Assembly: GCA_016125385.1 (NCBI GenBank)
Contig: WGLV01000036.1
Location: forward strand, 1-52,780
Direction of reading: 5' to 3'
DNA: 52,780 nucleotides
From: a bacterium
Lineage (GTDB): Bacteria > Hinthialibacterota > Hinthialibacteria > Hinthialibacterales > Hinthialibacteraceae
Shown here: positions 3,658 to 36,456 of the stretch, piece by piece
Layout of the letters: every line of letters begins with the position of its first letter
Position numbering within the stretch: the first letter of the stretch is position 1
Made by a program: the position numbers and the translations under genes
The notes under the pieces: generated by a model
The model's input: only the letters and a program-made list of their open reading frames with translations
The model's database searches: none
What the model was told of the DNA's origin: nothing

Positions 3658-4935
3658 CTACACGTCTTCCGTCAGCACGAACGGTTCGCGGTATTCTCGC
3701 CAGATCAGCTGGTTCGCCTCATCCGCGCCTGGCCCGGTGAATCGTTGCGTCTCGGCGTCAAACGCCAGATTGAGGCGCGTCCGGTAGGCGATGTTGGCGA
3801 GGTGACACATTGAGGTCGACTGATGGCCGATCTCGATCTCGGCGTTGGGGCGTTGCCGGCTGATGACGCAATCGATGAAGTTCTGATAGTGATTGCCGCC
3901 GCTGGCCTCCTGTTCTTCCAACAGGTTGCCGCCGTTGTCGTATGCTTTCCAGCCGCTTCCGTCCGTCGTCAGGCGCCCCTGTTCGCCGTAAAAAGTCACG
4001 CCGAATGAGTGGCCTTCAAATCCGGCGGGGTTCCATGTCCGGTGTTCCCACGTAACCGTGGCGTCATCGTATTCCAACACGGCGATCTGGGTATCGGGCG
4101 TTTGCTGGTCGTCGTCGAAAAAGTGTTTGGCGCCGCCCGCGCAAACCCGTTTCGCGAATCCGCCCTGAATGCCCCAGCGCGCCATGTCGAGCGCGTGGAT
4201 GCCGTTGTTGCCGCATTCGCCGGTGCCGTAATCCCAGAACCAGTGCCATTTGTAGTGAAAGTGGTTTTCGTCGAATGGCCGTTTGGGTCCCGGCCCCAGC
4301 CACAAGTCGTAATTCACGCCGTCTGGAACCGGCTCCGGTTCGGCGTGGCCGATGTTGGGGCGCTGGCTGACGATCCAGGCGCGCGCCATGTGCAGTGGGC
4401 CGATCTCTCCGTCGTGCAGAAACTTCATCGCGTTTTGAATCGCCGTGGCGCTGCGCCGTTGCGTGCCAATCTGAACCACGCGGCCGTATTTGCGGGCGGC
4501 TTTCACCATCAGCCGCCCTTCGGTGAGGTCGTGAGACGCGGGTTTTTCCACGTAGACGTCCTTGCCCGCCTGACAGGCCCAGATGGCGGCGATCGCGTGC
4601 CAGTGGTCGGGAGCGGCGACGACCAGCGCGTCGATCTGGTCGCCTTCAAGCAGACGCCTGAAATCGGTTTCCGCTTTGGGACGCGCCCCGGTGGCTTTTT
4701 CGACTTTCTCCTGCACGGGAGGAATCGTGCGCTCGTCGACGTCGCACAAAGCCGCGATGCGCGTGTTTTTGCATTGGATGAACTCATTCGCCAGTTGTGC
4801 GCCGCGTCCGTGCAGCCCCAAGATGGCGATGCGTACCGTGTTATTCGCCGCCAGCGAGGCGCGCGCCGTGAGCGCGGCGCTTGACGCCAGCAACGCCGAT
4901 CGGCTGATGAATTGTCTGCGGGTGGTTTCGGTCAT
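3658..4935 (-). CDS. Tat-exported Gfo/Idh/MocA family oxidoreductase
   Basis: A 425-residue protein with a twin-arginine leader (TTRRQFISRSALLASSAALT) and a Rossmann motif IAILGLHGRGAQL near residue 35, followed by CDVDE and the family EKPASHD motif. Members are NAD(P)-dependent oxidoreductases acting on sugars, inositols or glycosides; the substrate cannot be read from sequence. Export by Tat implies folding with a bound nucleotide in the cytoplasm before release to the periplasm. The ATG lies 3 bases past the stop of the upstream gene, and its Shine-Dalgarno GGAG overlaps that gene's end, so the two oxidoreductases are coupled. Confidence 0.9.
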   Translation of the reverse strand: MTETTRRQFISRSALLASSAALTARASLAANNTVRIAILGLHGRGAQLANEFIQCKNTRIAALCDVDERTIPPVQEKVEKATGARPKAETDFRRLLEGDQIDALVVAAPDHWHAIAAIWACQAGKDVYVEKPASHDLTEGRLMVKAARKYGRVVQIGTQRRSATAIQNAMKFLHDGEIGPLHMARAWIVSQRPNIGHAEPEPVPDGVNYDLWLGPGPKRPFDENHFHYKWHWFWDYGTGECGNNGIHALDMARWGIQGGFAKRVCAGGAKHFFDDDQQTPDTQIAVLEYDDATVTWEHRTWNPAGFEGHSFGVTFYGEQGRLTTDGSGWKAYDNGGNLLEEQEASGGNHYQNFIDCVISRQRPNAEIEIGHQSTSMCHLANIAYRTRLNLAFDAETQRFTGPGADEANQLIWREYREPFVLTEDV

Positions 4936-4938
4936 GGT

Positions 4939-5925
4939 TTATTCTCCATAGATCGTAGCGGGAGTGATCTCCGGCAGTTTCGCCGGACCTCCGCTCGTTT
5001 TGGACTGGTCGGCGGCTTCCATGAACGCCATCAGCTCCAGCGTCTCCAGCGGGTCGATGGGAGGCTTTTTCGTCTGGAAGAATTGTACGATCGTCTCAAC
5101 GAGTCCTTTATAGGTATGCCCCTCGACGAACTCGATCTTTTTCGTACCGTAAATCGTTGCGCCGTAGGTGTGCAGCCCTTCGCGAATTCCGCGAAAGGTT
5201 CCGATGCGTCCGTCGTTCCATATCCCCACCGTGACGTCGGCGGAGTCCTGCTGAAAGCGTGTGACCGAGACGCATCCGCGCCCCATTACGGTATACAGCG
5301 TTTCCACGCCGTGTACGCCGTACCAGAACAGGTCGGGATGATGTTCTTCGTATGAAATGGGCGAAAACGCTTCACACCCCTTTACCTCGCCCAGCTCGCC
5401 GCTTTTCAGCATCGTCTGCAAGGGTGGATACCAGCGCAGGCTCGATCCCCCGAACCACGGTACGCCCGCCTTGTGGGCCAGCCGCGCGATCTCAACCGCG
5501 TCGGCGTAGCTGCCCGCGACCGGTTTGTCGACGAAAAACGGCAGCCCGGCTTCGATGACCTTTCGGGCTTCTTCCAGGTGCGGGCGGCCATCCACGTTTT
5601 CAATCAGAACGCCGTCAACCATGCCGCACAGTTCCTCTATCGAATTGGTGATGGTCGCGCCGAACTCATCGCGCAGGCGTCTGGTGTATTCATCGACCCG
5701 CGACGCGCTTGATTCGATGTCGGGGCTTCCGCCCGGAAAACCCGCCACCACTCTGGCGCCCGGCACATGCTCGGGATGGTTGGGGTCGTTGAGAATCTGA
5801 GAAAAGGCGATGACGTGTGAGGTATCGAGACCGATCATCCCCAACCGGATCGGCTCCCCGGCGGCGCCGGCCGGTAAACACAGGGAAATCGTTATGATAA
5901 TGGCGGATAATAATTTGACGTTCAT
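4939..5925 (-). CDS. Gfo/Idh/MocA-like oxidoreductase, Sec signal peptide
   Basis: A 328-residue protein with a conventional signal peptide (hydrophobic core, AGAAG), then IRLGMIGLDTSHVIAFSQIL as a degenerate Rossmann start in which the usual GxGxxG is replaced by GLDTSH. FVDKPVAGSYADAVE carries the DKP variant of the family EKP motif. It is shorter than its partner and probably belongs to a divergent Gfo/Idh subfamily; whether it binds nucleotide is uncertain. A strong ribosome binding site (GAGGAG) sits just upstream. It is the first gene of a two-gene unit with the Tat-exported oxidoreductase. The AT-rich stretch at about 5950-5985 is the likely promoter region. Confidence 0.8.
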   Translation of the reverse strand: MNVKLLSAIIITISLCLPAGAAGEPIRLGMIGLDTSHVIAFSQILNDPNHPEHVPGARVVAGFPGGSPDIESSASRVDEYTRRLRDEFGATITNSIEELCGMVDGVLIENVDGRPHLEEARKVIEAGLPFFVDKPVAGSYADAVEIARLAHKAGVPWFGGSSLRWYPPLQTMLKSGELGEVKGCEAFSPISYEEHHPDLFWYGVHGVETLYTVMGRGCVSVTRFQQDSADVTVGIWNDGRIGTFRGIREGLHTYGATIYGTKKIEFVEGHTYKGLVETIVQFFQTKKPPIDPLETLELMAFMEAADQSKTSGGPAKLPEITPATIYGE

Positions 5926-6146
5926 GGATTCATTCTCCTCAGTAAAGTCTTCTTTTATAACATAACATAATAAAGTTAAACAGATGGGGCGGCGCTTTCA
6001 AAAAAACATCGAACATGGCTATACCCGCCGCTCGAGCCAAACGATAATAGACAACCCGGTTCACGAGCGGTTCGCGGCAGGGTCAATCCCGTCCTTTATC
6101 CGGGCGGGATTTGTAATATTCCGATGAACTTTGAGACGGCCCCCGC
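5926..6146. other. Divergent intergenic region with a stem-loop at 6085-6111
   Basis: This 221-base gap separates the minus-strand oxidoreductase pair from the plus-strand acetyltransferase. The left part (5950-5985) is strongly AT-rich, and on the minus strand contains TATAAAA preceded by overlapping TTATG repeats, a plausible promoter for the oxidoreductases. The right part holds an inverted repeat: 10-base arms at 6085-6094 and 6102-6111 (AATCCCGTCC and GGGCGGGATT, one G-T pair) with a 7-base loop. The tail is TGTAATATT rather than a run of T, so termination is doubtful; it lies 35 bases before the GNAT start. Confidence 0.45.
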
Positions 6147-6644
6147 ATGAAACTGTTCACCGACCGGTTTTGCATCCGCAATATCGTTCAACGAGACTGG
6201 AACGATTATTTCGAGATTTTTGGAAACCCGATCGTCTGCCAGTACGACGATTTTGAACCTACCCGGTTTGAAGACGCCAAGAGCGAAATCGCCCGCATTC
6301 TGCAAGCCTACGTCGAAAAAAGGCCCGAGCAGGAATTCGCGCTCGAATTGAAATCAGAGAAGAAGATGGTGGGCGTGTTGTCCTATCGCCTGAGCGGCGG
6401 CCTGCTGTATGTGGGCTATCATATTAACGTAAACTATCATGGCCGAGGCTTCGCCACCGAGGCCATGACCGAATTCATTCAATATCTCTCCAACGTCTTC
6501 AGCGAACCCATCGCCGCGGTCGTCGATTCTGAAAACGCGCCCTCCATCCGCGTGCTGCAAAAACTCGGTTTTAGAAAGGTCTCCTGCAAACCCGATCCCC
6601 TCAAAGCCGATCAGGGCAGAATCGAGTTGGAATACCGGTTGTAG
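6147..6644 (+). CDS. GNAT N-acetyltransferase, RimJ/RimL type
   Basis: A 165-residue single-domain acetyltransferase transferring acetyl from acetyl-CoA to an amino group; the acceptor is unknown. The acetyl-CoA loop YHGRGFATEAMTEFIQYL (about residues 92-110) and the C-terminal SENAPSIRVLQKLGFRKV block are diagnostic of the Acetyltransf_3 branch that includes ribosomal-protein acetyltransferases and resistance-like enzymes. No signal peptide is seen. The last 34 bases overlap the 3' end of the convergent membrane-protein gene. Confidence 0.9.
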   Translation: MKLFTDRFCIRNIVQRDWNDYFEIFGNPIVCQYDDFEPTRFEDAKSEIARILQAYVEKRPEQEFALELKSEKKMVGVLSYRLSGGLLYVGYHINVNYHGRGFATEAMTEFIQYLSNVFSEPIAAVVDSENAPSIRVLQKLGFRKVSCKPDPLKADQGRIELEYRL

Positions 6645-23146: not shown

Positions 23147-24373
23147 ATGTCTCAGTTTCGATACAAGGCGTTGCAGGCGGATGGCGGCATGACCGAAGGC
23201 GTGATCGAGGCGCAGGGCCGCCAGGACGCCATCGCGCGTCTGGAATCAAAGGGCTGGAAGCCAATCCAAATCGCCGAACAGGCCGCCGCCGCGCCGAAAA
23301 AAAGCGCTTCGTTCGCTTTGCCGGTTTTTTCGCGCCGCATCTCCTATCACGATCTCGAAAACTTTACTCGCCTTCTCGCCAGCCTGCTCGCGGCGGGCGT
23401 TCCCCTGAGCCGCGCGCTGGTCATCCTTCAGCGTGAGGCCGCCAATCCCGCCGCGTCCGAACGTTGGAAGGAAATTCACGATTGCGTCATCGACGGCATG
23501 TCGCTCGCCGACGCCATGGCGCAGAAGCCTCAGCCTTTTTCACGCATTTACATCGCGATGGTTCAGGCCGGCGAGACGGGCGGGTTTCTCGACGTGGTGC
23601 TCAGCCAGATCGCCGATTTTCAGTCGCGTGAAAAAGACCTGCGGTCCAAGGTGTCGACCGCGCTGATTTACCCAAGCGTGTTGATGGGGCTCGCGGTGTG
23701 CGTTCTGATTTTTCTGTTAACGTTTTTCATTCCGCGTTTTCAGAAAATCTTTTCCGGCTTTGGCGCCGAATTGCCCATGATTACCCAGATCATCATCGGC
23801 GCCAGTCACGCCGTGCGCAATTATGGAATCTTTATTCTGCTTGGCATCGGCATTCTCGCCTGGTTCGTGCGCAACTGGCTTGAATCAGAAAACGGCAGCC
23901 GCGCCTGGCAGCGGATTTTATTGAATTTGCCCGTGCTGGGGCCGCTCAGCGCCCGTTTCGCCATGACGCGCTTCTGCCGCATGCTGGGTACGCTCATCGG
24001 CGCCGGCGTGCCGCTCATTCAGGGGCTTAACGTGGCGCGCAAGTCGATTCACAACGCCATCCTCTTCGACGCGGTGTCCGATTCCATCGAACGCGTCAAG
24101 AAGGGCGATCCGCTTGCCTCCAGCCTGTCGCAATGTCCCCAGCTGTTTCCGGCGTCCATTCTCGAGATGATCTCCATCGCCGAAGAAACCGGCCGGCTCG
24201 ACCAGGAGCTCATCCGCATCGCGTCAGACGCGGAAGAAGATCTCGACCGCCGTCTGCGTATCGCCGTCGCGCTGGCCGAGCCGCTCATGTTGTTTGTTAT
24301 CGCCGGTTTCATCGGCGTGATCTTCATCGGCATGGTGATTCCCATCTTCACCATACAGGATTATATCAAATAG
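23147..24373 (+). CDS. gspF: Type II secretion inner-membrane protein GspF
   Basis: A 408-residue platform protein. It begins with FRYKALQADGGMTEGVIEAQ, the GspF N-terminal domain, followed by two copies of the T2SSF helical domain, each with the VQAGETGGFLDVVLSQIADF/SIAEETGRLDQELIRIASDA block. Transmembrane helices lie near residues 175-200, 225-245 and 375-400. It links the ATPase GspE to the pseudopilus base. GGAAAGGCGG precedes the start. Length is normal for the family. Confidence 0.97.
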   Translation: MSQFRYKALQADGGMTEGVIEAQGRQDAIARLESKGWKPIQIAEQAAAAPKKSASFALPVFSRRISYHDLENFTRLLASLLAAGVPLSRALVILQREAANPAASERWKEIHDCVIDGMSLADAMAQKPQPFSRIYIAMVQAGETGGFLDVVLSQIADFQSREKDLRSKVSTALIYPSVLMGLAVCVLIFLLTFFIPRFQKIFSGFGAELPMITQIIIGASHAVRNYGIFILLGIGILAWFVRNWLESENGSRAWQRILLNLPVLGPLSARFAMTRFCRMLGTLIGAGVPLIQGLNVARKSIHNAILFDAVSDSIERVKKGDPLASSLSQCPQLFPASILEMISIAEETGRLDQELIRIASDAEEDLDRRLRIAVALAEPLMLFVIAGFIGVIFIGMVIPIFTIQDYIK

Positions 24374-24442
24374 CCAGACAACGCGCCGCATGGCGTGAAT
24401 TGAATGATTGGAATCAACGATCGAATTATTGGAGGCGGAACG

Positions 24443-24892
24443 ATGAACCGGAAACTGAATCACACAGGCGCTGACCTTCGCCGCGAGGCGGGCTTCACCC
24501 TGGTCGAAATGCTGCTCGTGCTCGTGATCCTGGCGACTTTGGCGGCCATTGTCGTGCCCAAGTTCGCCGGACGCTCCGAACAGGCGAAGGTGACCGCAGC
24601 GCAAACCCAGATATCCAACTTCGAGATGGCGCTCGACGCCTTCGAGGTTGACAACGGGCTCTATCCCAAGGGCGGCGACGGTCTGAAGGATCTGGCCGAA
24701 CAGCCCAATTACGCCAAAGACTGGCGAGGACCTTACTTGGATGACGTACCGCTCGACCCTTGGGGCAACGCGTACATCTATGAATACCCGGGCAAGCACA
24801 ATCCGCGTGGATTCGACCTGATGTCGATGGGCCCCGATGGCCGCACCGGCGGCGATGACGACATCACCAATTGGGACAAGGATAAGAAGTGA
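24443..24892 (+). CDS. gspG: Major pseudopilin GspG
   Basis: A 149-residue protein: a basic leader, EAG|FTLVEMLLVLVILATLAA, then the GspG core LDAFEVDNGLYPKGGDGLKDL, the proline-rich LDPWGNAYIYEYPGKHNPRG and the calcium-site region DLMSMGPDGRTGGDDDITNW. These are hallmarks of GspG (PulG), the main pseudopilus subunit, whose loop binds calcium through Asp residues. The ATG at 24443 follows TGGAGGCGG; an earlier in-frame ATG at 24404 lacks an RBS. The 69-base gap after gspF is the longest gap among the gsp genes. Confidence 0.97.
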   Translation: MNRKLNHTGADLRREAGFTLVEMLLVLVILATLAAIVVPKFAGRSEQAKVTAAQTQISNFEMALDAFEVDNGLYPKGGDGLKDLAEQPNYAKDWRGPYLDDVPLDPWGNAYIYEYPGKHNPRGFDLMSMGPDGRTGGDDDITNWDKDKK

Positions 24893-24894
24893 TC

Positions 24895-25398
24895 ATGACG
24901 CGCCGCCGGGGCTTCACGCTGATCGAACTGATCGTCGTGATGGCGCTGCTTTCCGCGCTGCTGGCGGCCTCCGCGCCCACTCTGTCGCGTTTTTTTCACG
25001 GGCGCTCGATGGATGAAGAAGCTTTGCGCTTTCTCTCGCTTACCCGCTACGCGGCCAGCGAGGCGGCGTCGCGATCCATCCCTCTTTCGCTCTGGATCGA
25101 CCCGGTTCGCAAAGGGTACGGGCTGGAAGCGCAGCCTGGGTATGAAGAAGACGGCTTTCAACCGTTCGCGTACCAGATGGACGAAAACCTGTCCGTCGAG
25201 ATCGAACCGCGGAACGCGCTGCAGAACGGCATGGCGCGAATCCGCTTCACCCCGGGCGGGCTCAGCGAAAGCGATGTGGAGTGGGTGAGGTTTTATCGAG
25301 AAGGAGAACCCGGCTTGTGGATCGTCAAGAAGATCGCCGGGCCTGAATACGAAATTCTGAAGGAAGCCGATGTCCGCGAGCGCCAGGCGTTTCAGTGA
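24895..25398 (+). CDS. gspH: Minor pseudopilin GspH
   Basis: A 167-residue pseudopilin. RRRGFTLIELIVVMALLSAL gives the prepilin site and +5 Glu, and the downstream FLSLTRYAASEAASRSIPLS matches the GspH/FimT helix ('L...R..A..r...v.L'). The body ends with strands rich in charged residues. GTG at 24889, overlapping the gspG stop, is an alternative start two codons earlier. The end overlaps gspI by 29 bases. Role: minor pseudopilin beneath the tip complex. Confidence 0.85.
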   Translation: MTRRRGFTLIELIVVMALLSALLAASAPTLSRFFHGRSMDEEALRFLSLTRYAASEAASRSIPLSLWIDPVRKGYGLEAQPGYEEDGFQPFAYQMDENLSVEIEPRNALQNGMARIRFTPGGLSESDVEWVRFYREGEPGLWIVKKIAGPEYEILKEADVRERQAFQ

Positions 25399-25831
25399 GT
25401 TTTCGGCGCCGTGCGCGGCACGGCGCGGTGAGCGCGCGTTCACCTTCGTTGAGATTCTGATGACGATGGTGTTCATGGCGGTGGTGATTCCCGTGGTGTT
25501 GCACGGTGTTTCGCTCGCCAACCGCGCGGCGGTATTCGCCGAACGCAAAGAAGCGGCGGCGCGGACCGCGGAACGCCTGCTGGATGAGCTGATCCTGACT
25601 GACGAGTGGCAATCCGGCGCTCAATCGGGCGTCGTTACCGTAAACCGGATCGAGTACGAATGGAAACTCATCAGTGAATCATGGCTTGATGATTCGATGA
25701 CCCAACTGACCCTGGTTGTCTTCTTTACCGTACAGGGCCAGCAATACGAATCGCATCTCAGCGCGCTGGTCGAGACCGAAACCACCAGCAGCGAATCGAC
25801 CGAAACGAGTGAAAGCGGCCAATCGTCATGA
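25370..25831 (+). CDS. gspI: Minor pseudopilin GspI
   Basis: A 153-residue pseudopilin with a 22-residue leader and the cleavage site ERA|FTFVEILMTMVFMAVVIP, then KEAAARTAERLLDELILTDE, the GspI-type 'A..lA..ll.e' helix. The last 20 residues are Ser/Thr/Glu-rich (ETETTSSESTETSESGQSS), a low-complexity tail that ordinary GspI proteins lack. It starts inside gspH and its stop overlaps gspJ as ATGA. GspI joins GspJ and GspK in the pseudopilus tip. Confidence 0.82.
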   Translation: MSASARRFSEFSAPCAARRGERAFTFVEILMTMVFMAVVIPVVLHGVSLANRAAVFAERKEAAARTAERLLDELILTDEWQSGAQSGVVTVNRIEYEWKLISESWLDDSMTQLTLVVFFTVQGQQYESHLSALVETETTSSESTETSESGQSS

Positions 25832-26727
25832 GAGCGTCCAACCCGCATACCCCGCGCCGTGAAGCGGGCTTCACCCTGCTGGAGGTGATTGTGGCCGCCG
25901 CCATGTCGGCGGTGATCATCCTCGCCTTGCAGGGGGCCTTTTTCGGCGCGATGAAATTGCGTGAACGCGCTTACGCGGCGGTTGAGAGCGGTCAGCGTGA
26001 AACCTGGGCGCGTACCCTGCTTGAACGCGATCTCAAAAACGCCGTGCCCCCCACCGATTCGCTTTCCGATTCATGGATCGGCCAGCAGAACGGCTCCGAT
26101 CAATCGCGCAATGATTCCTTTGCGTTTTATACCAGCACCGGCGAGATGCAGGAGCTGCTCCCCTGGGGCGTCGTACAAAACGTGATGTACCAGCTTACGC
26201 CCTCTACCGATCCAACCCGGCCCGCCGGAATGGACCTCGTCCGGTACGTGATCCGTAACCTCAACGCGCCCGAAACAGGGGTGCAGGACCCGCCGGAATC
26301 CGAGATCGTCATGCAGAACGTCAATTCGCTGGCGTTTTCGTATTACGACGGCTCTTCGTGGCTCGATTCATGGGATTCGACGGAAGAAGAGGCGAAGGTT
26401 CCTGAAGCCGTCCTCGTTCAGATCGCCTATTTGTCTGAAGAAGATCTGGAGGCCCAGAACACGCGCAACCCGAACATAAGAGAAGACAACCTCATGAGGA
26501 TGGAAATCCTCGTGCCTGTTACGGTGAAGCCTCAGGAAGAATCATCCAGCGATGAAACCGCCTCGCAGAGCGATGACGGCGGCTCCGGAGGCGATACGAA
26601 CGGAGGAGACTCGGGCGGACAAACCCCCGGCGGCTCGGGCGGACAGACGCCCGGAGGCGCGGGAGGCGATACGGGCGGCGGTTCCCGGCCCCCCGGTGGA
26701 AGTGGAGCGGGAGGTGGAGGCCGATGA
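25828..26727 (+). CDS. gspJ: Minor pseudopilin GspJ with Gly-rich C-terminal tail
   Basis: A 299-residue protein. EAGFTLLEVIVAAAMSAVII is the prepilin site and helix; TWARTLLERDLKNAVPPTDS matches the GspJ 'r.l..D.....p' block. The globular domain runs to about residue 235. The remaining 60-odd residues are a Gly/Asp/Thr/Gln-rich tail with repeats such as GGQTPGGSGGQTPGG, unusual for GspJ (typically about 200 residues). The DNA coding the tail shows repeated short units, suggesting expansion. Start overlaps gspI as ATGA and the end overlaps gspK as ATGA. Confidence 0.85.
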   Translation: MRASNPHTPRREAGFTLLEVIVAAAMSAVIILALQGAFFGAMKLRERAYAAVESGQRETWARTLLERDLKNAVPPTDSLSDSWIGQQNGSDQSRNDSFAFYTSTGEMQELLPWGVVQNVMYQLTPSTDPTRPAGMDLVRYVIRNLNAPETGVQDPPESEIVMQNVNSLAFSYYDGSSWLDSWDSTEEEAKVPEAVLVQIAYLSEEDLEAQNTRNPNIREDNLMRMEILVPVTVKPQEESSSDETASQSDDGGSGGDTNGGDSGGQTPGGSGGQTPGGAGGDTGGGSRPPGGSGAGGGGR

Positions 26728-28076: not shown

Positions 28077-29488
28077 AGTCAAAATCACCCTCCGTGAAAT
28101 CGCTGGTGTGCATCGCTCTCCGCCCGGGCTGGATGGAGGCGATGGTCTTCGTTCCCAACGGACGCGGTGGCCGCGTGCGAAAATGCCTGTCTTCGGCGTT
28201 GTCGCTCGATCCGTTGTCTGACGACGCTGAATTGGTGGGCCGCGAGTGGAAGACGAAACTGCGTGAAGCGGGCGTCGTCGAAACGCAGTGCCTGATCTGC
28301 GTCCCGCTGCAATGGGCGATGTCCGTCGCGATCGATTTGCCCGAACTCTCGCGTGAGGATGAAGCCAGTTACATTCAGCTCAACGTCGAGCGCGCCATCC
28401 CCTTTGCGCTGGATGACGTCGTTCTTTCCAGCGTCAAGTTTCAGACGCCTGACGGCAAACGCTGGGCGACTCTCTCCGCCCTGCCTAAGACGTACATCAG
28501 CGCGCTTGAAGCGATCTGCCGCCGCGCGGGGCTTAAGCCGCTCAGTTTCACCTTCGCTTATCCCGCGGCTGAAGGCCAGCGTCCCGGTTCGGGCCGCGTC
28601 ATGATGAGAAAGTCGAACGGCGGCGTCGATCTCTGGGTTGAATACAACGGCGCCGTGGCCGCCATGCGCCGGCTGGTGCTCGGTGATGAAGATGACGGAA
28701 CGCTGACTGAATACGACGCGGCGTCGCTGCAACGCGAGCTGCGCATTACGCTCGGCCAGGCGCCCTCCGCGATTACGCCGGAATTGAACACGTTGCAGGT
28801 GTACGGCCCCTCCGCGTGGGAACGCTCCGCGCGCGCCGCGCTGGTTGAACCCATGCGACGCCTGGGCCTCGAAACCGTTTCGGGAACTTGGCCTGAGTGG
28901 ATCGCCTCTTGTGGAATCGCTTCAGGTCATGACGTCTTCGCGCCGCTTGCGTTGGCGGCGTGGGCGTTCGTGACGCGTGACGTGAATCGTTTTGAATTCT
29001 GCCCGCCCCGCATCCAGCGATGGAAAAAATACGCCGCCCGCGTGGCCTCGCGCGGCAATCTGGTTTTCGGCGGCGCCGCCGTACTGGTCGCCGTAATCAT
29101 CGCCGCGATGTTTATCCAGCAATCGTTACGCCTCTCCAGCCTTGAATCGCAGTGGGATGGGATTCGCGGCAAAGTGACGGAGGTCGAAGCGCTTCAGCGC
29201 AACGTCAAAACCTTCAAATCGTGGTTCGATACGTCCATCCCCAGTCTCGGCGCTATGCGGGTTCTGACCGAAGCGTTCCCTGAAGGGGGCGATGCGTGGA
29301 CGAAACTGGTTGAAATTGAAGACGGTTACCGCGTTTCCTGTTCAGGCTTCGCGCGAAGCAACCGTGATTTTCTCGAAATTCTCGATCGTTTGTCTGAAGA
29401 CGATCGCGTGCTGGGCTATCAGGTTCAGCAGGTTCAATACGGCGAACCGCTTCAGTTTTCGCTATCTCTGCAATGGTCTGGAGTCTGA
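28073..29488 (+). CDS. gspL: GspL-type assembly protein (PilM/PilN fusion)
   Basis: A 471-residue protein that joins a cytoplasmic actin-like (PilM/GspL) domain (about residues 1-300) to a single transmembrane helix (NLVFGGAAVLVAVIIAAMF, about 329-350) and a periplasmic ferredoxin-like PilN/GspL-C region. In T2SS it anchors GspE at the membrane and partners GspM. Sequence identity to the enteric protein looks low; the call rests on domain layout, membrane position and operon place. Start overlaps gspK; stop is 4 bases before gspM. Confidence 0.82.
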   Translation: MKSKSPSVKSLVCIALRPGWMEAMVFVPNGRGGRVRKCLSSALSLDPLSDDAELVGREWKTKLREAGVVETQCLICVPLQWAMSVAIDLPELSREDEASYIQLNVERAIPFALDDVVLSSVKFQTPDGKRWATLSALPKTYISALEAICRRAGLKPLSFTFAYPAAEGQRPGSGRVMMRKSNGGVDLWVEYNGAVAAMRRLVLGDEDDGTLTEYDAASLQRELRITLGQAPSAITPELNTLQVYGPSAWERSARAALVEPMRRLGLETVSGTWPEWIASCGIASGHDVFAPLALAAWAFVTRDVNRFEFCPPRIQRWKKYAARVASRGNLVFGGAAVLVAVIIAAMFIQQSLRLSSLESQWDGIRGKVTEVEALQRNVKTFKSWFDTSIPSLGAMRVLTEAFPEGGDAWTKLVEIEDGYRVSCSGFARSNRDFLEILDRLSEDDRVLGYQVQQVQYGEPLQFSLSLQWSGV

Positions 29489-29492
29489 ATCG

Positions 29493-30032
29493 ATGCAGCC
29501 ACGTTCCCGTGAAAAAATCCTGTTGATCGCCACGATGGTTTGTTTCGCCCTGTTGGCGAGCGACCGGCTGATCTTTACGCCGCTCTTCAGCGTGTGGGAA
29601 GCGCGCGCCGAAGAGGTCGATAAACTCAACAAAGACCTCACGCAGGGGCGTATGTTGCTCTCGCGTGAACGCGAATTGCGCAAGCGATGGCGCGAGATGC
29701 AGCGCGACGCATTGCCCGCCGACAGCGCGGCGGCCGAAAATCTCGTCCTCAAGGCGGCCGATCGCTGGACGAAAGACAGCCACGTCAACGTAACGTCGTT
29801 CAAGTTGCAATGGAAACAACCGGAAGAAGGCTATGAAACGCTTGAATGCCGCGCCGTAGCCCAGGGCGATATGAGCCAGTTATCGCGCTTTGTGTACGAA
29901 CTCGAACGCGATCCCGTGCCGGTGCGAATCGATAATCTGGAAATCACATCCAAAGATGAGAACGGCGCAACCCTGATGCTCGCCATCCAGTTCAGCGGCG
30001 TGAAATTCGTGGAGAAGGAATCAAACTCATGA
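29493..30032 (+). CDS. gspM: GspM/PilO-like assembly protein
   Basis: A 179-residue bitopic protein: a short basic N-terminus (MQPRSREK), one transmembrane helix (ILLIATMVCFALLASD), a coiled-coil segment (about residues 35-75, VDKLNKDLTQGRMLLSRERE) and a C-terminal ferredoxin-like domain (LSRFVYELERDPVPVRIDNL) typical of GspM/PilO. It pairs with GspL in the inner-membrane platform. I chose ATG 29493; upstream in-frame codons lie inside gspL. ATGA overlap with the next gene. Confidence 0.82.
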   Translation: MQPRSREKILLIATMVCFALLASDRLIFTPLFSVWEARAEEVDKLNKDLTQGRMLLSRERELRKRWREMQRDALPADSAAAENLVLKAADRWTKDSHVNVTSFKLQWKQPEEGYETLECRAVAQGDMSQLSRFVYELERDPVPVRIDNLEITSKDENGATLMLAIQFSGVKFVEKESNS

Positions 30033-30694
30033 ACCTGCGCCGCTTGAATCACACTTTTCTCGCCGCTCTTTTGCTTATCGTTGCCGCCGGTTATTTCGCC
30101 GCCGCGCAAGACGGCGCACCCGCCACTCCGGCTCAGGATGGAAACGGCCCCGAATTCGATGAATTCCGCGTAATCATTGAGCGCAACATCTTCAACCCCA
30201 ACCGGCGCGGCCCTCAGGTTGAGCGAGAGCCTGAACCCGAACCGCCGCCCGTTCAGGTCGATGAGTATGTTTTGCTCGGTACGCTGCTCACCGATCAGAC
30301 CGCTTACGCTTTCATCGAAGGGCGGGGCGCCGTGGGCGATGACGTGATGAGCGTGGGCGATGCTCTGGCCGATGGCGTAATCCGTGAAATTCAGGCGTCA
30401 TCCATCGTAGTTGCAGCCAGCGAGTCGGCTGAGACCCTCGCCGTGGGCGAAGCGCTCTCGCGACGCGACGGCGGACCGTGGGCTAAAACGGCTCCGTCGG
30501 CGGGCGGCGGATCGTCTCGCTCTGGGCGATTCAGCCGATCGAGCCGTACTAACGCTTCTCAAACTCAGGCGGAAGCGCCCAAAGAAGAAACTAAATCCGG
30601 CTCCGAAGCGGCGAACGCCGCCGATTCAGGTTCTGATGCCAATGAAATACTGAAAAGAATGATGGAGCGACGAAAACAGGAGTTGAGCAAATGA
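30029..30694 (+). CDS. gspC: GspC/PilP-like periplasmic linker protein
   Basis: A 221-residue protein with an N-terminal hydrophobic segment (LAALLLIVAAGYFAAAQ) that acts as signal or membrane anchor. The motif IIERNIFNPNRRG is the conserved 'r.iF.p' entry of the GspC homology region, followed by YVLLGTLLTDQTAYAFIEGR and VMSVGDALADGVIREIQASS, the small beta-barrel that contacts the secretin N0 domain. The last 80 residues are Ser/Ala/Glu-rich and disordered, with no PDZ domain. The position before the secretin genes fits GspC. PilP-like is the alternative name. Confidence 0.72.
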   Translation: MNLRRLNHTFLAALLLIVAAGYFAAAQDGAPATPAQDGNGPEFDEFRVIIERNIFNPNRRGPQVEREPEPEPPPVQVDEYVLLGTLLTDQTAYAFIEGRGAVGDDVMSVGDALADGVIREIQASSIVVAASESAETLAVGEALSRRDGGPWAKTAPSAGGGSSRSGRFSRSSRTNASQTQAEAPKEETKSGSEAANAADSGSDANEILKRMMERRKQELSK

Positions 30695-32172
30695 ATAAAA
30701 AAACGATCAACCTGGCGTTGGCCCTCGCGGCCGCATTATGGATCACCGGCGCCGGGCTCTCCGCAGGCGCTCAGAGCGCGGCGGCGCCCGCGCCGCAAAG
30801 CGCCACCCCTCATAACGACATCCGCATGAACTTTCGCGGTGTGCCCATCGATCAGGTGTTGGAATACCTGAGTCAGGCGGCGGGCTTTATCATCGTGAAA
30901 GAAGTGGAGGTTGACGGCCCCGTTAACGTGATGAGTTACCAGCCGCTGAATGATGAAGAAGCGGTCGCATTGCTTAATACGGTTCTGAACGAAAAGGGGT
31001 TCGCCGCTGTTCGCAATGGCCGCACTCTCACCATCGTCAAACGCGATGACGCCAAACAGCGCAATATCCCGGTCAAAACCGGCGCGAATCCTGACGCCAT
31101 TCCACAGACGGACGAAATGGTGACTCAGATCATTCCGGTTCGGTACGCCGACGCGACCAAACTGATCGAGAACCTTCAACCATTGATGCCGACGTACGCC
31201 ACCATGAGCGCGAACGAGAGCAGTAACGCCATCGTGTTGACCGACACCCAGTCTCACGTTCGCCGCATGGTTGAGATTGTCCGCGCGCTGGATACTTCCA
31301 TATCCAGCATCTCTTCGTTGCGCGTATTCTCGCTTCAGTATTCCGACGCCACCGAACTCGCCGACGTGGTGAACCAGTTGTTTCAGGAAGACACGAGTTC
31401 CAGCAATCGTAATAACCGGCGTGGAAACTTTCCGCCCTTTTTCGGTGGTCCCGGCGGCCCGGGCGGGCGGGGAGGCCGAGGCGATAACAGCGACGATCAA
31501 ACCGACAGCACCGCGCTCAAAGCCGCGTCCCGCGTCGTCGCGGTGGCGGATGAACGATCGAATTCACTGGTCGTCAGCGCCCCCGATGAACTCATGCCGA
31601 TTATCGAAAACATGATTCATGAAATCGATTCCGCGGTGGAAGACCTGACTGAAATCCGTGTGTTCAAACTGATGTACGCCGACGCGACCGAAACCTCCAG
31701 CATGATTACCGAACTGTTTCCTGATGAGTCGTCATCCAGCAATCAGAATAATAACTTCCGCTTTGGACGCGGCGGTTTCTTTGGCGGTCCCGGCGGGCCG
31801 GGCGGCCCCGGCGGCGGTCAGAGTACGTCATCCAATAGCGAACGCAAACAGCTGCAGACCACGGTACGTTGCGTTCCCGACCCGCGCACCAATTCCCTCG
31901 TGGTGACCGCGTCGCGCGATCTGATGTTTCAGATATCTCAAATGATCGAACGGCTCGACGCCAATCCGGCCAAGAAACAACAGGTTTACGTTTATCGCCT
32001 CGAACACGCCGACGTTGACAACGTGGCGGAAATTCTCCGGGGCATCTTCGAAACGACCAACACCACGCGGAACCGTCAGACGACGACCGGCAGCCAGAGC
32101 GGCAATACGCTCAGCAACCGTACCGTGACCACGCCGCAATCATTCGGCGCCGGCGGCGGGCTTGGCCAGTAA
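30691..32172 (+). CDS. gspD: Secretin N-terminal part (N0-N3 and half of the last N domain), GspD-N
   Basis: A 493-residue exported protein (signal peptide 1-28, cleaved near AGAQS). Order: N0/STN 42-120, N1 142-203, N2 208-315, N3 320-425, then the first strand-helix half of a further N domain (VYVYRLEHADVDNVAEILRG, 432-451), and a Ser/Thr/Gln-rich tail to the stop. N2 and N3 each carry a Gly/Pro-rich loop (FFGGPGGPGGRGGRG; FFGGPGGPGGPGGG) between their two halves. There is no secretin barrel. The missing second half of the last N domain begins the next protein. The gene overlaps gspC by 4 bases. Confidence 0.88.
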   Translation: MNKKTINLALALAAALWITGAGLSAGAQSAAAPAPQSATPHNDIRMNFRGVPIDQVLEYLSQAAGFIIVKEVEVDGPVNVMSYQPLNDEEAVALLNTVLNEKGFAAVRNGRTLTIVKRDDAKQRNIPVKTGANPDAIPQTDEMVTQIIPVRYADATKLIENLQPLMPTYATMSANESSNAIVLTDTQSHVRRMVEIVRALDTSISSISSLRVFSLQYSDATELADVVNQLFQEDTSSSNRNNRRGNFPPFFGGPGGPGGRGGRGDNSDDQTDSTALKAASRVVAVADERSNSLVVSAPDELMPIIENMIHEIDSAVEDLTEIRVFKLMYADATETSSMITELFPDESSSSNQNNNFRFGRGGFFGGPGGPGGPGGGQSTSSNSERKQLQTTVRCVPDPRTNSLVVTASRDLMFQISQMIERLDANPAKKQQVYVYRLEHADVDNVAEILRGIFETTNTTRNRQTTTGSQSGNTLSNRTVTTPQSFGAGGGLGQ

Positions 32173-32193
32173 CAGGCGAAAGGGAAAAAGATC

Positions 32194-33411
32194 ATGTTCC
32201 GAAAACAATACTTACTCGTCATCATCCTCGCTGCGGCGATCGCCTGGCTCGCTCCTGAGTCGGCCCACGCCCAGTTTCGCCAATTCGGCGGTTCTTCTTC
32301 GTTTTCCGGCGGCGGTTCCAGCAGTTCGTATGGAACCCAGCGGTCTTATTATACGAACGGCATGGTAGGCGAAGCCATCATCCAGGCCGATCACGATACG
32401 CGTTCAATCATCGTCATCACCGACGAAGAGACCAACGAGCATATCAAGAAAATCATCGAGAGCCTCGATCATCCGGTCCAGCAGGTGTTGATCAAGGTCG
32501 TGTTTCTTGAAGTGACCTACCGCAACGACACCGATATCGGCATTGAGGGCTCGATCAACATCAATGGAAACAGCGACGGCACGGGTAATATGTTCCAGAC
32601 GGCGTATGGTCTCGCCGCCGAGACGCGCGGCGGGTTTTACACCCTGCTTGAAAAAGACCTGAACCTCACCATGCGCGCTATCGCCGAGGTCGGCCATACG
32701 GAAGTTCTTTCACGGCCTTCGATCTTGACTCGCAACAATCAGGAAGCCGTGATCACCGTCGGTAAAGAAGTGCCCTTCGTCACCAACAGCCGTATCTCCG
32801 ACACTGGCCAGACCATCAATACCGTCGAATATCAGGACATCGGCATCATTCTGCGCGTAACGCCGTTTATCACGCAGGACGGCCTCGTCGAGATGATTCT
32901 CGCGCCGGAAATCTCGACCGTCACCGATGAAACCGTGCCTATTTCCGATACGATCAACTCTCCCGTGTTCGCCAAGCGTTCCGCCGACACCGTCGTCGTT
33001 ACGCCTAACGGCAAAACGGTCGTCATCGGCGGCATGATGGAAGATAACAAGACCAAGGTCGAGAACAAAATTCCCATTCTGGGCGATATTCCCCTGCTGG
33101 GTATGGCGTTTCGGCGCAACACGAAAAACGATTCGAAAACCGAATTGATTATTTTTCTGACGCCGTACGTCGTCGAAGGGCCGCAGGATCTGGTTAAAAT
33201 GTCTCAATCTGAACGCGACCGCTCCGAACTTTCACCGCAGGCGTTCGATCAGAAACAACTCGACAAATATATTGACAATTTGCCGCCCACTGAAAATAAA
33301 CTGGATGAAGAAGGCGTCGATTCCGCTCCCGCCGGGGGAAACTCCAATGGTCAGAGCGGAGATTTAACGGATTCTTCCGTACGCCGTAATTCGAAGGGGC
33401 GCCCGTTTTAA
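32194..33411 (+). CDS. gspD: Secretin C-terminal part (barrel) with its own signal peptide, GspD-C
   Basis: A 405-residue protein with a fresh signal peptide (KQYLLVIILAAAIAWLAPES, AHA cleavage), a Gly/Ser linker, then residues 57-95 (IIQADHDTRSIIVITDEETN, then IKKIIESLDHP). This is the second half of an N domain, aligning with the second halves of N2 and N3 in the previous protein. Residues 96-345 are the secretin domain with EVPFVTNSRISDTG, the secretin signature IPILGDIPLLGMAF and LIIFLTPYVVEG. The C-terminal 60 residues are polar, perhaps an S-domain-like tail. The gene follows 21 bases after GspD-N and has its own RBS (GGCGAAAGGG). The two proteins must assemble together. Confidence 0.9.
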   Translation: MFRKQYLLVIILAAAIAWLAPESAHAQFRQFGGSSSFSGGGSSSSYGTQRSYYTNGMVGEAIIQADHDTRSIIVITDEETNEHIKKIIESLDHPVQQVLIKVVFLEVTYRNDTDIGIEGSININGNSDGTGNMFQTAYGLAAETRGGFYTLLEKDLNLTMRAIAEVGHTEVLSRPSILTRNNQEAVITVGKEVPFVTNSRISDTGQTINTVEYQDIGIILRVTPFITQDGLVEMILAPEISTVTDETVPISDTINSPVFAKRSADTVVVTPNGKTVVIGGMMEDNKTKVENKIPILGDIPLLGMAFRRNTKNDSKTELIIFLTPYVVEGPQDLVKMSQSERDRSELSPQAFDQKQLDKYIDNLPPTENKLDEEGVDSAPAGGNSNGQSGDLTDSSVRRNSKGRPF

Positions 33412-33515
33412 ACTGGAGAGGAAACCCGCGCGCTGATTCAATAACGAGCGGCGCTCGCCGTTTGAATATGTGAGTGACGCTCAACAGAGGATGGCCGCCT
33501 GAGGTTACGCGAACG

Positions 33516-35084
33516 ATGAAACGAAAAATTGTGATTCCGGTTGTGTTGGTGCTTTTCGGCCTGATGGTGGCCGTCTGGCAATATTTTGAACATCAGCGCT
33601 TCGTCGACTACTCGCGCGAGGCGCTGTACAACCGGGCGCGCGATATCAGTAATACTCTGGCGGTGGTCATCCGCTCCCAGCGCCTGTTTGGTGGAATGGT
33701 CATGCAGGCCCGGCTCGAACTGGCCCTCTGGGACCTCGTTCAGCCCGAAGAAATCCGCTCTATCACGCTGATCAATACAAAAGGAGACGTGGTCGCCTGG
33801 GCGGGGCAGGGCGTGGAGGAAACCGATCCCGAATTACTCAAGGAAGGCGTCAGCTGGAAAGGCGACACCGTCGCGTTCGTCAATCTCGCCGACCTGGGAG
33901 TCGATCAGGATCGCGAAGGCCCCGATTCCGAACCGACTCTGATTCTTACGGAAGAAGACACGCACCGAATCTTCCGGCCCGATCGCCGTCCGCCACCCCC
34001 GCCCGACTTTGAGGAAAAGAACTTCGATCGCGGCCCTGACGGCCCGCCCGGTGAGATGGCGAATGCGACCGGTGAAGTGAACGCCGCCTCCGGATTTCTG
34101 CACGACGCGACGCCGCCTCCGCCGGATGAGCGCCGGGGCGGACGCGGCGAGTTTCGCGGCGGACGTCCGCGCTTCGGCCGCCCTCCCTGGATGGACGAGG
34201 AGGAATACAAATCACTGCTGGGCCGCGCCGGGTTGTACGGCTTTCGCATTGAAATGTACAACAACGATTACTACGCCGCCTGCGAGCGCGATCTCTGGAT
34301 GCGTGGAATCATCTGCGGCTTCGCTCTGATCGCGATGCTGGGCGGCCTCGCCGCGTGGCGCAATGTGATGAAAAATTCCGCGTTGCAGGTCCGGCTGGTG
34401 CGCGCCAGCGAGATGAACGCCCATCTGCGCGAGATGAATCTCGCCGCCGCCGGTCTGGCGCATGAGACGCGCAATCCACTCAATATCGTGCGTGGCCTGG
34501 CTCAGCTCATTTCGCGCAAATCCAGCCCTGGCGATGAGGTTCACCGCGAGGCGGTTCAGATCGCTGAAGAAGTCGATCGCGTTACGGCGCAATTGAATGA
34601 ATTCATCAATTATTCCAAACCGCGAGACGCCAAACCCGCGCCGGTCAGGCTATATAACGTCGTCAAAGACGTGGAACGCGCGTTACACAGCGACGTGGAA
34701 GACAAAAATATCACGGTGACGTTGCAAAATCTCGATCGGGTCATTGAAGCGGATGAAACCCTGCTGCGTCAGGTGATCTTCAATCTGTTCATGAATTCGG
34801 TTCAGGCCGTGAATGAAGGCGGCGCCATCGTCATTGAAAGCGTGCAACGCGGCGCGGAGCTTGAGTTGGTGATTCGCGATGACGGCCCGGGCGTTCCGCG
34901 TGAAAGCATCGATAAAATATTTCGGCCTTATTTCACAACGAGAGAAGGGGGAACGGGCCTCGGCCTGTCAGTGGTGAATCAGATCGTTCAGGCTCACGGT
35001 TGGGACGTCCGTTACGAAGACGCCCGTGGCGGGGGAGCCTGTTTCCGTATATCCCCCATGAAGATCGTTTCGCTGGGAGAATGA
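33516..35084 (+). CDS. Membrane sensor histidine kinase of the T2SS operon
   Basis: A 522-residue kinase. Helix 1 (IVIPVVLVLFGLMVAVWQYF) and helix 2 (GIICGFALIAMLGGLAAW, about 265-285) flank a 220-residue periplasmic sensor that contains a Pro/Arg/Gly/Asp-rich insertion (DRRPPPPPDFEEK; GGRGEFRGGRPRFGRPPW). The catalytic core is intact: LAHETRNPLN with His316, N box NLFMNSVQAV, DDGPGVP, F box FRPYFTTREGG, GTGLGLSVV. It is of the NtrB/ZraS type. The downstream response regulator begins 1 base past its stop, and the gene follows the secretin by 104 bases. The signal sensed is unknown. Confidence 0.88.
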   Translation: MKRKIVIPVVLVLFGLMVAVWQYFEHQRFVDYSREALYNRARDISNTLAVVIRSQRLFGGMVMQARLELALWDLVQPEEIRSITLINTKGDVVAWAGQGVEETDPELLKEGVSWKGDTVAFVNLADLGVDQDREGPDSEPTLILTEEDTHRIFRPDRRPPPPPDFEEKNFDRGPDGPPGEMANATGEVNAASGFLHDATPPPPDERRGGRGEFRGGRPRFGRPPWMDEEEYKSLLGRAGLYGFRIEMYNNDYYAACERDLWMRGIICGFALIAMLGGLAAWRNVMKNSALQVRLVRASEMNAHLREMNLAAAGLAHETRNPLNIVRGLAQLISRKSSPGDEVHREAVQIAEEVDRVTAQLNEFINYSKPRDAKPAPVRLYNVVKDVERALHSDVEDKNITVTLQNLDRVIEADETLLRQVIFNLFMNSVQAVNEGGAIVIESVQRGAELELVIRDDGPGVPRESIDKIFRPYFTTREGGTGLGLSVVNQIVQAHGWDVRYEDARGGGACFRISPMKIVSLGE

Positions 35085-35085
35085 C

Positions 35086-36456
35086 ATGAACGTACAACAA
35101 CGCCCCCTCATCACCCAACACGTCATCCTCGTGGTGGATGACGATCAGAGCCAGCGCAGCCTGCTGTCATCGTTTTTGACGGGGCAGGGATTCCAGATTC
35201 TTCCGGTCGCCAGCGGAGAAGAAGCCCTTCAGGTTTTATCTCAGCGTGAAGATATCGAGATGATGATATCCGACGTGCGCATGCCGGGCATCTCCGGCCT
35301 CGACGCGCTTGAGAAAGTCCGCGAAATTCATCCCCATCTGCCCGTATTGATGGTCACCGCGTACGCCGACATCCGTGACGCGGTGCGCGCCATGCGCGAC
35401 GGCGCCGTTAACTATCTGGAAAAACCCATCGATCTGGATGAACTGCTGCGTTCCGTGTTGAGGGCCGTCGGCGTGGAAGGCGCTTCGCGCGCCTCGCTGC
35501 CTGACGATCTGCGCCTGCCTGATGACGTCGTCGCGCAGAGTCCATCCATGATGGAAGTGTTTCGCGAGGCCGCGCTGGTCGCCGCATCCGACAGCCGCAT
35601 TCTTATCACCGGTGAAAGCGGCGTCGGAAAAGAGATTCTCTCGGACGTGGTTCACGGATGGAGCCCGCGCCGCGAAAAGCCTTTCATTAAAGTAAACTGC
35701 GCCGCTATACCGGACGCATTGCTCGAGAGTGAACTGTTCGGACACGAAAAAGGATCGTTCACGGGCGCCTCTCAACAGCGTATCGGCCGTTTTGAAGAAG
35801 CCGCCGATGGAACTATTCTGCTTGACGAAATCGCCGAGATGTCGCCAACGCTTCAGGCGAAACTGCTGCGCGTCACTCAGGATGGAACCTTTCAGCGAGT
35901 CGGCTCCAACAAAGAACGCAATACCAACGCGCGCATTCTCGCCGCCACCAACCGCAACCTGGAGGAAGAAGTCGAAAAGGGCGCGTTCCGCGAAGACCTG
36001 TTCTTTCGTCTTAACGTGATGGAAATCTTCATCCCGCCGTTGCGCGACCGCCGCGAAGACATCCTTCCCCTCGCCACGCGTTTCGCCGCCGAGTTTACCC
36101 AGAGCAAACCGCGATTCTCAAACTCGGTGTCTCATTGCCTCGAACAATATGAATGGCCCGGCAACGTCCGTGAACTGCGCAACGCCATCGAGCGCGCCAC
36201 GCTGATCTCGCGCGGCGACGTGATCATCCCCGAACACCTGCCCAAGCGTCTTCAATCCTTCCTGTCGGGCGCGTCCGAGTCTGAAGGGCGTGAAAACAAA
36301 ACCCGTCTTGAAGACATCGAGCGAGATGCGATCTTTGAAGCGCTCAAAAAACACAACAACAACCGCACTCAGACCGCGCGCGAACTGGGCATCAGCCGCC
36401 GCGCGCTGCTCTACAAACTGCAGAAATACATCGAGCAGGGGTATCCCGTCGAATGA
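35086..36456 (+). CDS. NtrC-family sigma-54 response regulator
   Basis: A 456-residue activator: receiver domain 1-130 with phosphorylated Asp63 (ISDVRMPGISGLD) and Lys in EKPID; AAA+ domain with Walker A GESGVGKE at 176, the sigma-54 contact loop GSFTGA at 223-228 (Ser in place of the usual Ala), Walker B TILLDEIAEM and the sensor-II Arg region; C-terminal Fis-type helix-turn-helix RTQTARELGISRRALLYKLQ. It drives sigma-54 RNA polymerase at -24/-12 promoters. With the kinase it forms a ZraSR/NtrBC-type pair located at the end of the T2SS operon, so autoregulation is plausible. Confidence 0.94.
   Translation: MNVQQRPLITQHVILVVDDDQSQRSLLSSFLTGQGFQILPVASGEEALQVLSQREDIEMMISDVRMPGISGLDALEKVREIHPHLPVLMVTAYADIRDAVRAMRDGAVNYLEKPIDLDELLRSVLRAVGVEGASRASLPDDLRLPDDVVAQSPSMMEVFREAALVAASDSRILITGESGVGKEILSDVVHGWSPRREKPFIKVNCAAIPDALLESELFGHEKGSFTGASQQRIGRFEEAADGTILLDEIAEMSPTLQAKLLRVTQDGTFQRVGSNKERNTNARILAATNRNLEEEVEKGAFREDLFFRLNVMEIFIPPLRDRREDILPLATRFAAEFTQSKPRFSNSVSHCLEQYEWPGNVRELRNAIERATLISRGDVIIPEHLPKRLQSFLSGASESEGRENKTRLEDIERDAIFEALKKHNNNRTQTARELGISRRALLYKLQKYIEQGYPVE

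What the first reader, a model, noticed from the sequence alone, without database searches (positions are those of the whole stretch)
30691..33411. Type II secretin split inside an N domain into two separately exported proteins
GspD is normally one chain. Here GspD-N carries signal peptide, N0, N1, N2, N3 and only the first half of one more N domain (VYVYRLEHADVDNVAEILRG). The next gene has its own signal peptide and begins with the matching second half (ADHDTRSIIVITDEETNEHI). That half aligns with the second halves of N2 (ADERSNSLVVSAPDELMPII) and N3 (DPRTNSLVVTASRDLMFQIS). The break sits exactly where N2 and N3 carry long Gly/Pro-rich loops, so a loop appears to have become a gene boundary and the domain would be completed in trans. 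This is directly visible; how common it is I cannot say.
Basis: partly seen in the sequence, partly recalled or inferred. Interest (0 to 1): 0.78.

Follow-up and report, generated by a model that had tools for sequence, protein, structure and literature searches.

The report
Secretin split inside one domain
The outer-membrane gate of a bacterial protein-export machine, normally one protein, is here made as two separately exported proteins that each carry half of the same small domain; forty related loci in two bacterial phyla are built the same way, so it is an old, maintained two-part gate and not an error.

Summary
In a complete type II secretion operon the secretin GspD is encoded by two genes, 30691-32172 and 32194-33411. 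Each product has its own signal peptide. The first ends halfway through an N domain and the second begins with the missing half. One correction: the broken domain is the canonical N3.

All 40 loci examined (11 in ten genomes of the window's own phylum, OLB16/SURF_12 lineage; 29 genomes of a second phylum, Verrucomicrobiota by record title) are split at the same N3 loop. Planctomycetota relatives examined are fused, mostly with a long low-complexity loop there. Split forms make one clade (100/100). Stop codons, gaps and reading frames vary, which excludes sequencing error and readthrough. Both half-domains are as conserved as intact N domains. Both new ends carry clade-specific motifs (LxxR in 39/41 GspD-N tails; Tyr in 39/40 GspD-C leaders).

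A linked AlphaFold2 model forms one N-type fold from the halves. No two-chain prediction or experiment was possible. The closest precedent, rhizobial T3SS RhcC1/RhcC2, is a chimera of two secretins. This is a new variant: one secretin cut within a domain.

The parts
30691..32172 (+). gspD-N: signal peptide, N0, N1, N2, N2', first half of N3, low-complexity C-tail
   Evidence: NCBIfam TIGR02517 GspD 5.7e-71 over model 1-335
30817..31038 (+). N0 domain (residues 43-116)
   Evidence: PF21305 5.9e-11; phmmer to PDB GspD N0-N1
31117..31299 (+). N1 domain (residues 143-203)
   Evidence: PF03958 stretches; strand/helix pattern in model
31321..31632 (+). N2 domain with Gly/Pro-rich loop (residues 211-314)
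   Evidence: PF03958 best stretch 211-315
31654..31962 (+). N2' domain, extra copy, with Gly/Pro-rich loop (residues 322-424)
   Evidence: second alignment of the fused-GspD profile, positions 254-424; absent from L067-L069 and from fused L011
31978..32055 (+). first half of N3: strand and helix (residues 430-455)
   Evidence: (mean identity 0.60)
32104..32127 (+). conserved LxxR motif (NTLSNRTV, residues 472-479) in the C-tail of GspD-N
   Evidence: LxxR in 39 of 41 split-type GspD-N tails; shuffled tails mean 6.1, max 13
32173..32193 (+). 21-nt intergenic gap with purine-rich ribosome-binding stretch
   Evidence: gap and frame vary in relatives
32194..33411 (+). gspD-C: signal peptide, Ser/Gly-rich leader, second half of N3, secretin domain, C-tail
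   Evidence: TIGR02517 7.2e-71 over model 273-599
32194..32271 (+). second signal peptide (AHA-Q cleavage site)
32344..32352 (+). conserved Tyr region (SYY, residues 51-53) just before N3 half 2
   Evidence: 39 of 40 split GspD-C have Tyr/Phe here; fused relatives vary
32371..32478 (+). second half of N3: two strands and helix (residues 60-95)
   Evidence: PF03958 positions 32-69
32683..33177 (+). secretin (pore) domain
   Evidence: PF00263
21449..23128 (+). gspE ATPase
   Evidence: TIGR02533 2e-184
23147..24373 (+). gspF
   Evidence: TIGR02120 1.6e-112
24404..24892 (+). gspG major pseudopilin
   Evidence: TIGR01710 above cut-off
24889..26727 (+). gspH, gspI, gspJ minor pseudopilins
   Evidence: weak family matches TIGR01708, XpsI, TIGR01711
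26724..28076 (+). gspK
   Evidence: PF03934, PF21687
28073..29488 (+). gspL-like (PilM-like)
   Evidence: weak TIGR01175 and position
29292..30032 (+). gspM-like
   Evidence: NF040576 8.7e-12, PF10741; true start probably downstream of 29292
30029..30694 (+). gspC-like
   Evidence: NF041515 4.1e-6, below cut-off, and position
33474..36456 (+). two-component pair (histidine kinase, sigma-54 type response regulator)
   Evidence: a similar kinase also follows gspD-C in L044, L048 and L067

Best explanation
This is a two-subunit type II secretin. GspD-N (N0, N1, N2, N2', half of N3) and GspD-C (other half of N3 and the pore domain) are each exported by Sec and co-assemble in the periplasm, one of each per protomer. 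The N3 domain is completed in trans, so the N3 ring is the non-covalent joint between the periplasmic vestibule and the outer-membrane pore. The break removed the N3 loop of ordinary GspD and left two flexible ends, each with a conserved motif (LxxR on GspD-N, Tyr on GspD-C) that probably helps them dock. Shown: the split, its conservation, its single clade, selection on both halves, the conserved motifs. Inferred: co-assembly, completion in trans, docking role of the motifs.
For: Complementary halves: in 16 pairs GspD-N ends near position 416-435 and GspD-C starts near 411-446 of a fused-GspD profile. All 24 loci found in one class of the second phylum are split too. Both genes lie side by side in a T2SS operon (gspC/L/M-like ORFs upstream in the second phylum). 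N3 half 1 and half 2 have mean pairwise identity 0.60 and 0.54, against 0.54-0.64 for the other N-domain pieces and 0.22-0.31 for tails and loops; dN/dS 0.04 and 0.08 for the half-domains in one pair. Linked AlphaFold2 model of N3 alone: pLDDT mostly above 90 in both halves; the only strand of half 1 is called a strand by DSSP and only half 2 offers partner strands. In the full linked model N3 has the same order of strands and helices as N2 and N2'. Best Foldseek hits are GspD structures. Split clade supported 100/100. LxxR in 39/41 tails; Tyr in 39/40 leaders.
Against: No two-chain prediction was possible and no coordinates or PAE could be inspected. The linked query is an artificial read-through and the alignments included fused homologues, which favours a joined domain. 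For the N3-only model the Foldseek E-values are weak (best 0.11) and many hits cover only half 2. Two lineages (L050, L051) lack LxxR and one (L051) lacks the Tyr, so these motifs are not essential everywhere. An apparently unpaired GspD-N exists in G014.
Confidence: 0.8

Rival explanations
1. The two chains work together, but N3 is not rebuilt from the two halves: GspD-C uses a reduced N3 ring and GspD-N docks some other way.
For: No direct two-chain structure; the half-domains are short; two lineages lack the conserved end motifs.
Against: Half 1 of N3 is conserved like an intact domain although it would then have no role; linked models fold the halves together.
Confidence: 0.13
2. Stop-codon readthrough or recoding yields some full-length GspD.
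For: In the window and several relatives the two ORFs are in the same frame with a single stop between.
Against: Frames are random elsewhere: 8 of 24 in frame in one class; out of frame in L049, L050, L051, L065, L067-L069. Stop codons are TAA, TAG and TGA. Readthrough would leave a hydrophobic signal peptide in the middle of the chain.
Confidence: 0.02
3. Sequencing error or a decaying gene.
For: None found.
Against: Forty split loci; both ORFs have start sites and signal peptides; purifying selection.
Confidence: 0.005
4. A chimera of two different secretins, as in rhizobial T3SS (RhcC1 remnant plus Tad-type RhcC2).
For: Same outcome: two separately encoded secretin parts (PMC3459982).
Against: Both parts score about equally against the GspD model (239.8 and 239.4 bits), align in complementary fashion to one fused GspD profile, and are adjacent in one T2SS operon.
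Confidence: 0.03

Closest known systems
Type II secretin GspD (PulD, XcpQ, ExeD, EpsD)
   Same: N0, N domains, secretin domain, T2SS operon; best matches of both halves
   Different: Encoded as two exported chains split inside N3; an extra N2-like domain
Rhizobial/P. syringae-type T3SS secretin RhcC1 + RhcC2 (HrcIIC1/HrcIIC2)
   Same: Secretin in two genes, N part and pore part (PMC3459982, PMC3574062)
   Different: There the parts have distinct origins (T3SS-type remnant and Tad-type secretin), the genes are apart, and RhcC1 holds the first N domain; here one secretin is cut inside a single domain and the genes are adjacent
Fused Planctomycetota GspD, e.g. L011 (894 aa)
   Same: Among the nearest fused relatives in the tree; same domain order; long Gly/Ser/Thr-rich loop at the same place in N3
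   Different: Single chain, no N2' in L011, no LxxR or fixed Tyr at the loop ends
TadB/TadC platform proteins
   Same: Gene fission within the type IV filament superfamily, discussed in PMC6668835
   Different: Inner-membrane platform, not an outer-membrane secretin, and not presented there as a cut inside one small domain

Membership tests
Type II secretin GspD | N0 domain of GspD type | tested here: met
   PF21305 5.9e-11, above its cut-off
Type II secretin GspD | N1-N3 (Secretin_N) domains | tested here: met
   four stretches in ORF1 plus half in ORF2; N3 is whole only when both chains are counted
Type II secretin GspD | Secretin pore domain | tested here: met
   PF00263 2.2e-48
Type II secretin GspD | Curated whole-protein score of TIGR02517 | tested here: not met
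   each chain 239-240 bits, cut-off 351; each covers only part of the model
Type II secretin GspD | Encoded in a T2SS operon with gspE/F/G/K | tested here: met
Type II secretin GspD | Single polypeptide chain | tested here: not met
   two chains in 40 loci
Type II secretin GspD | Multimeric ring in the outer membrane that secretes proteins | not testable with these tools
   needs biochemistry or cryo-EM
Rhizobial split T3SS secretin (RhcC1/RhcC2) | Part of a T3SS, pore part related to Tad secretins | tested here: not met
   T2SS operon; pore part scores best with GspD
Rhizobial split T3SS secretin (RhcC1/RhcC2) | Two genes of distinct origin | tested here: inconclusive
   both halves fit one GspD profile equally; GspD-N tree not built

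The most novel reading that the evidence does not exclude
A separable secretin: the N3 ring is a reversible joint made from half-domains of two exported proteins and held by newly evolved end motifs (LxxR and Tyr), so the periplasmic vestibule and the outer-membrane pore can assemble, be checked or be exchanged independently, and the N3 constriction of the channel is formed by free tails instead of a closed loop.
Probability: 0.3. Interest if true: 0.8.

Novelty: new variant of a known kind. Interest (0 to 1): 0.62.

Why it matters
Secretins are large, very stable rings, and how their periplasmic part is joined to the pore and gates it is hard to study in a single chain. Here the chain has been cut inside the N3 domain and kept cut across two phyla, so the joint can be tested with two separate proteins. 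It also suggests that the N3 loop is dispensable as a covalent link. Annotation pipelines may miss such secretins, since each half falls below the curated GspD cut-off.

Tried and rejected
Sequencing error, pseudogene and readthrough were rejected. A mixed MAFFT alignment of separate N and C chains (A1) was useless because the repeated N domains were aligned to each other; it was replaced by read-through rows and fused rows (A2, A5). Own-genome paralogous secretins were left out of the second tree because of very long branches. The single genome-contig scan gave only three loci, so breadth came from the genome search samples. Four paper searches for split, bipartite or Verrucomicrobia/OLB16 type II secretins found only the rhizobial-type case in the open library. 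L130 looked fused by frame length (942) but is split: GspD-N and GspD-C are in different frames.

Full report
What is there. The window holds one T2SS operon read left to right: gspE (21449), gspF, gspG, three minor pseudopilins, gspK, gspL-like, gspM-like, gspC-like, then two secretin genes, then a histidine kinase and a sigma-54 type response regulator. The first secretin gene, 30691-32172, gives a signal peptide, N0 and Secretin_N domains. The second, 32194-33411, gives a second signal peptide, a Ser/Gly-rich leader, the last 38 positions of a Secretin_N domain and the pore domain. Against NCBIfam GspD each chain scores about 240 bits and covers a different part (1-335 and 273-599 of 600), both under the curated cut-off of 351.

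Which domain is cut. Solved GspD structures align the end of ORF1 with the start of N3 and the region around residues 47-97 of ORF2 with the rest of N3 (5wq7). A profile built from seven fused Planctomycetota GspD puts the end of GspD-N at about position 416-435 and the start of GspD-C at about 411-446 in all 16 pairs tested; the window gives 424 and 438. The cut domain directly precedes the pore domain and is N3. ORF1 contains an extra N2-like domain, which L067-L069 and the fused L011 lack. PulD residues 288-303, a loop, were left out of the cryo-EM model (PMC6882859); ORF2 begins to align at chain position 306 of PulD, though the numbering offset was not checked.

How widespread. In the window's phylum 14 genomes were searched; ten, the window's own included, hold a close relative of GspD-C (11 loci), all short chains with GspD-N just upstream. 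Four genomes of two other families lack it. A second phylum, Verrucomicrobiota by the title of L010, has it in 6 of 195 sampled genomes and in 24 of 141 genomes of one class; all were split. In 199 Planctomycetota genomes 28 had relatives at E<=1e-40; the 21 inspected, L011 included, encode N3 in one open chain, in most with a long Gly/Ser/Asn-rich loop.

One origin. Trees of the shared C part put all split forms on one side of a branch with 100/100 support, with 17 and with 34 split rows. The fused forms included Planctomycetota GspD and giant secretins of the second phylum. The trees are not rooted by an outside group, so 'one clade' assumes that the root lies among the fused forms.

Not an error, not readthrough. 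The stop codon of GspD-N is TAA, TAG or TGA; the gap to GspD-C is 4 to 54 nt in the 16 pairs measured; L049, L050, L051, L065 and L067-L069 are out of frame, and in the class sample 8 of 24 are in frame, the chance value. In 40 of 40 GspD-C a signal-like hydrophobic start is present, 38 with a typical cleavage site followed by Gln. Between close relatives dN/dS is 0.08-0.21 for GspD-N and 0.07-0.13 for GspD-C, with 0.04 and 0.08 for the two half-domains in one pair (few sites).

Selection keeps both halves. Mean pairwise identity over ten divergent GspD-N is 0.60 for N3 half 1, like N0, N1 and the halves of N2 and N2' (0.54-0.64), against 0.27 for the tail. In GspD-C N3 half 2 is 0.54, the pore 0.59, the leader 0.22. 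This is not expected of a leftover fragment.

New motifs at the new ends. The GspD-N tail is low in complexity but carries LxxR, usually as [NS]xLxxR, in 39 of 41 loci (40 pairs plus the unpaired L070); shuffled tails gave a mean of 6.1 and at most 13 (related sequences are not independent, so this is a description, not a probability). The GspD-C leader has a Tyr just before the G-[E/D/S]-A strand in 39 of 40, while fused relatives vary there. L051 lacks both, and L050 lacks LxxR and has an altered leader; these two lie outside the well-supported set that holds all other split rows in the second tree. That fits motifs gained after the cut and a partnership between them, but does not show it.

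Structure. Because the window's two ORFs are in frame, the read-through (TAA read as Gln) was folded as a linked chain. The full model has moderate confidence (mean pLDDT 57.6, pTM 0.31), with N3 as strand 431-436, helix 442-453, low-confidence linker, strands 563-567 and 572-577, helix 579-592, the same order as in N2 and N2'. The N3-only model has pLDDT mostly above 90 in both halves; half 1 has only one strand, so its strand assignment needs a partner in half 2. Foldseek gives PulD first for the full model (3.8e-29). For N3 alone the best hit, ExeD, has TM 0.34 over 190 residues, roughly both halves, against about 0.18 where only half 2 aligns, but its E-value is 0.11. This supports packing without proving it, since fused homologues were in the alignment.

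Mechanism. Most likely GspD-N and GspD-C are exported separately and join through N3. XcpQ work places N3 structurally with the C domain and links it to prepore stability (PMC5646246), so GspD-N would give each pore subunit half of its N3. Possible benefits, all inferred: a check that pores mature only with a vestibule, independent folding of a repeat-rich vestibule, or a more open N3 constriction.

Comparison. The known split secretin is that of rhizobial-type T3SS, where RhcC1 is a remnant of the original secretin and RhcC2 a Tad-type replacement (PMC3459982; PMC3574062). Here one secretin appears to have been cut inside one domain. No report of a split type II secretin was found in the open-access library, which does not hold most subscription papers.

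Noticed in passing
L005 and L008 (own genome, contig C13 about 4879-6392, minus strand): Two adjacent very short secretin genes (377 and 381 aa), each with a signal-like start and no room for N domains, next to a TPR lipoprotein-like gene. One search shows paired neighbouring secretin matches in several relatives of the phylum.
   Followed up: partly
L144-L149, L089/L116: Secretin pore domains in very long open frames (2928-4276 aa); L116 shows many repeated matches to the N domains.
   Followed up: no
L150:5676-7157 (-), same gene as in L070: A GspD-N relative (44% identical, with half N3 and an LxxR tail, DPLLAR) without a GspD-C next to it; the downstream neighbour is an alcohol-dehydrogenase-like gene. 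Its genome G014 showed only one split-type GspD-C.
   Followed up: partly
L051 about 5186-5330: The N-terminal part of gspD-N in G001 is out of frame with the rest, a frameshift or assembly error away from the split.
   Followed up: no
window 31415-31520 and 31750-31840: Similar Gly/Pro-rich loops in N2 and N2' (GGPGGPGG), consistent with duplication of N2.
   Followed up: no
window 33474-36456: A kinase and sigma-54 regulator pair directly after the T2SS operon; a similar kinase follows gspD-C in L044, L048 and L067, suggesting dedicated regulation.
   Followed up: partly
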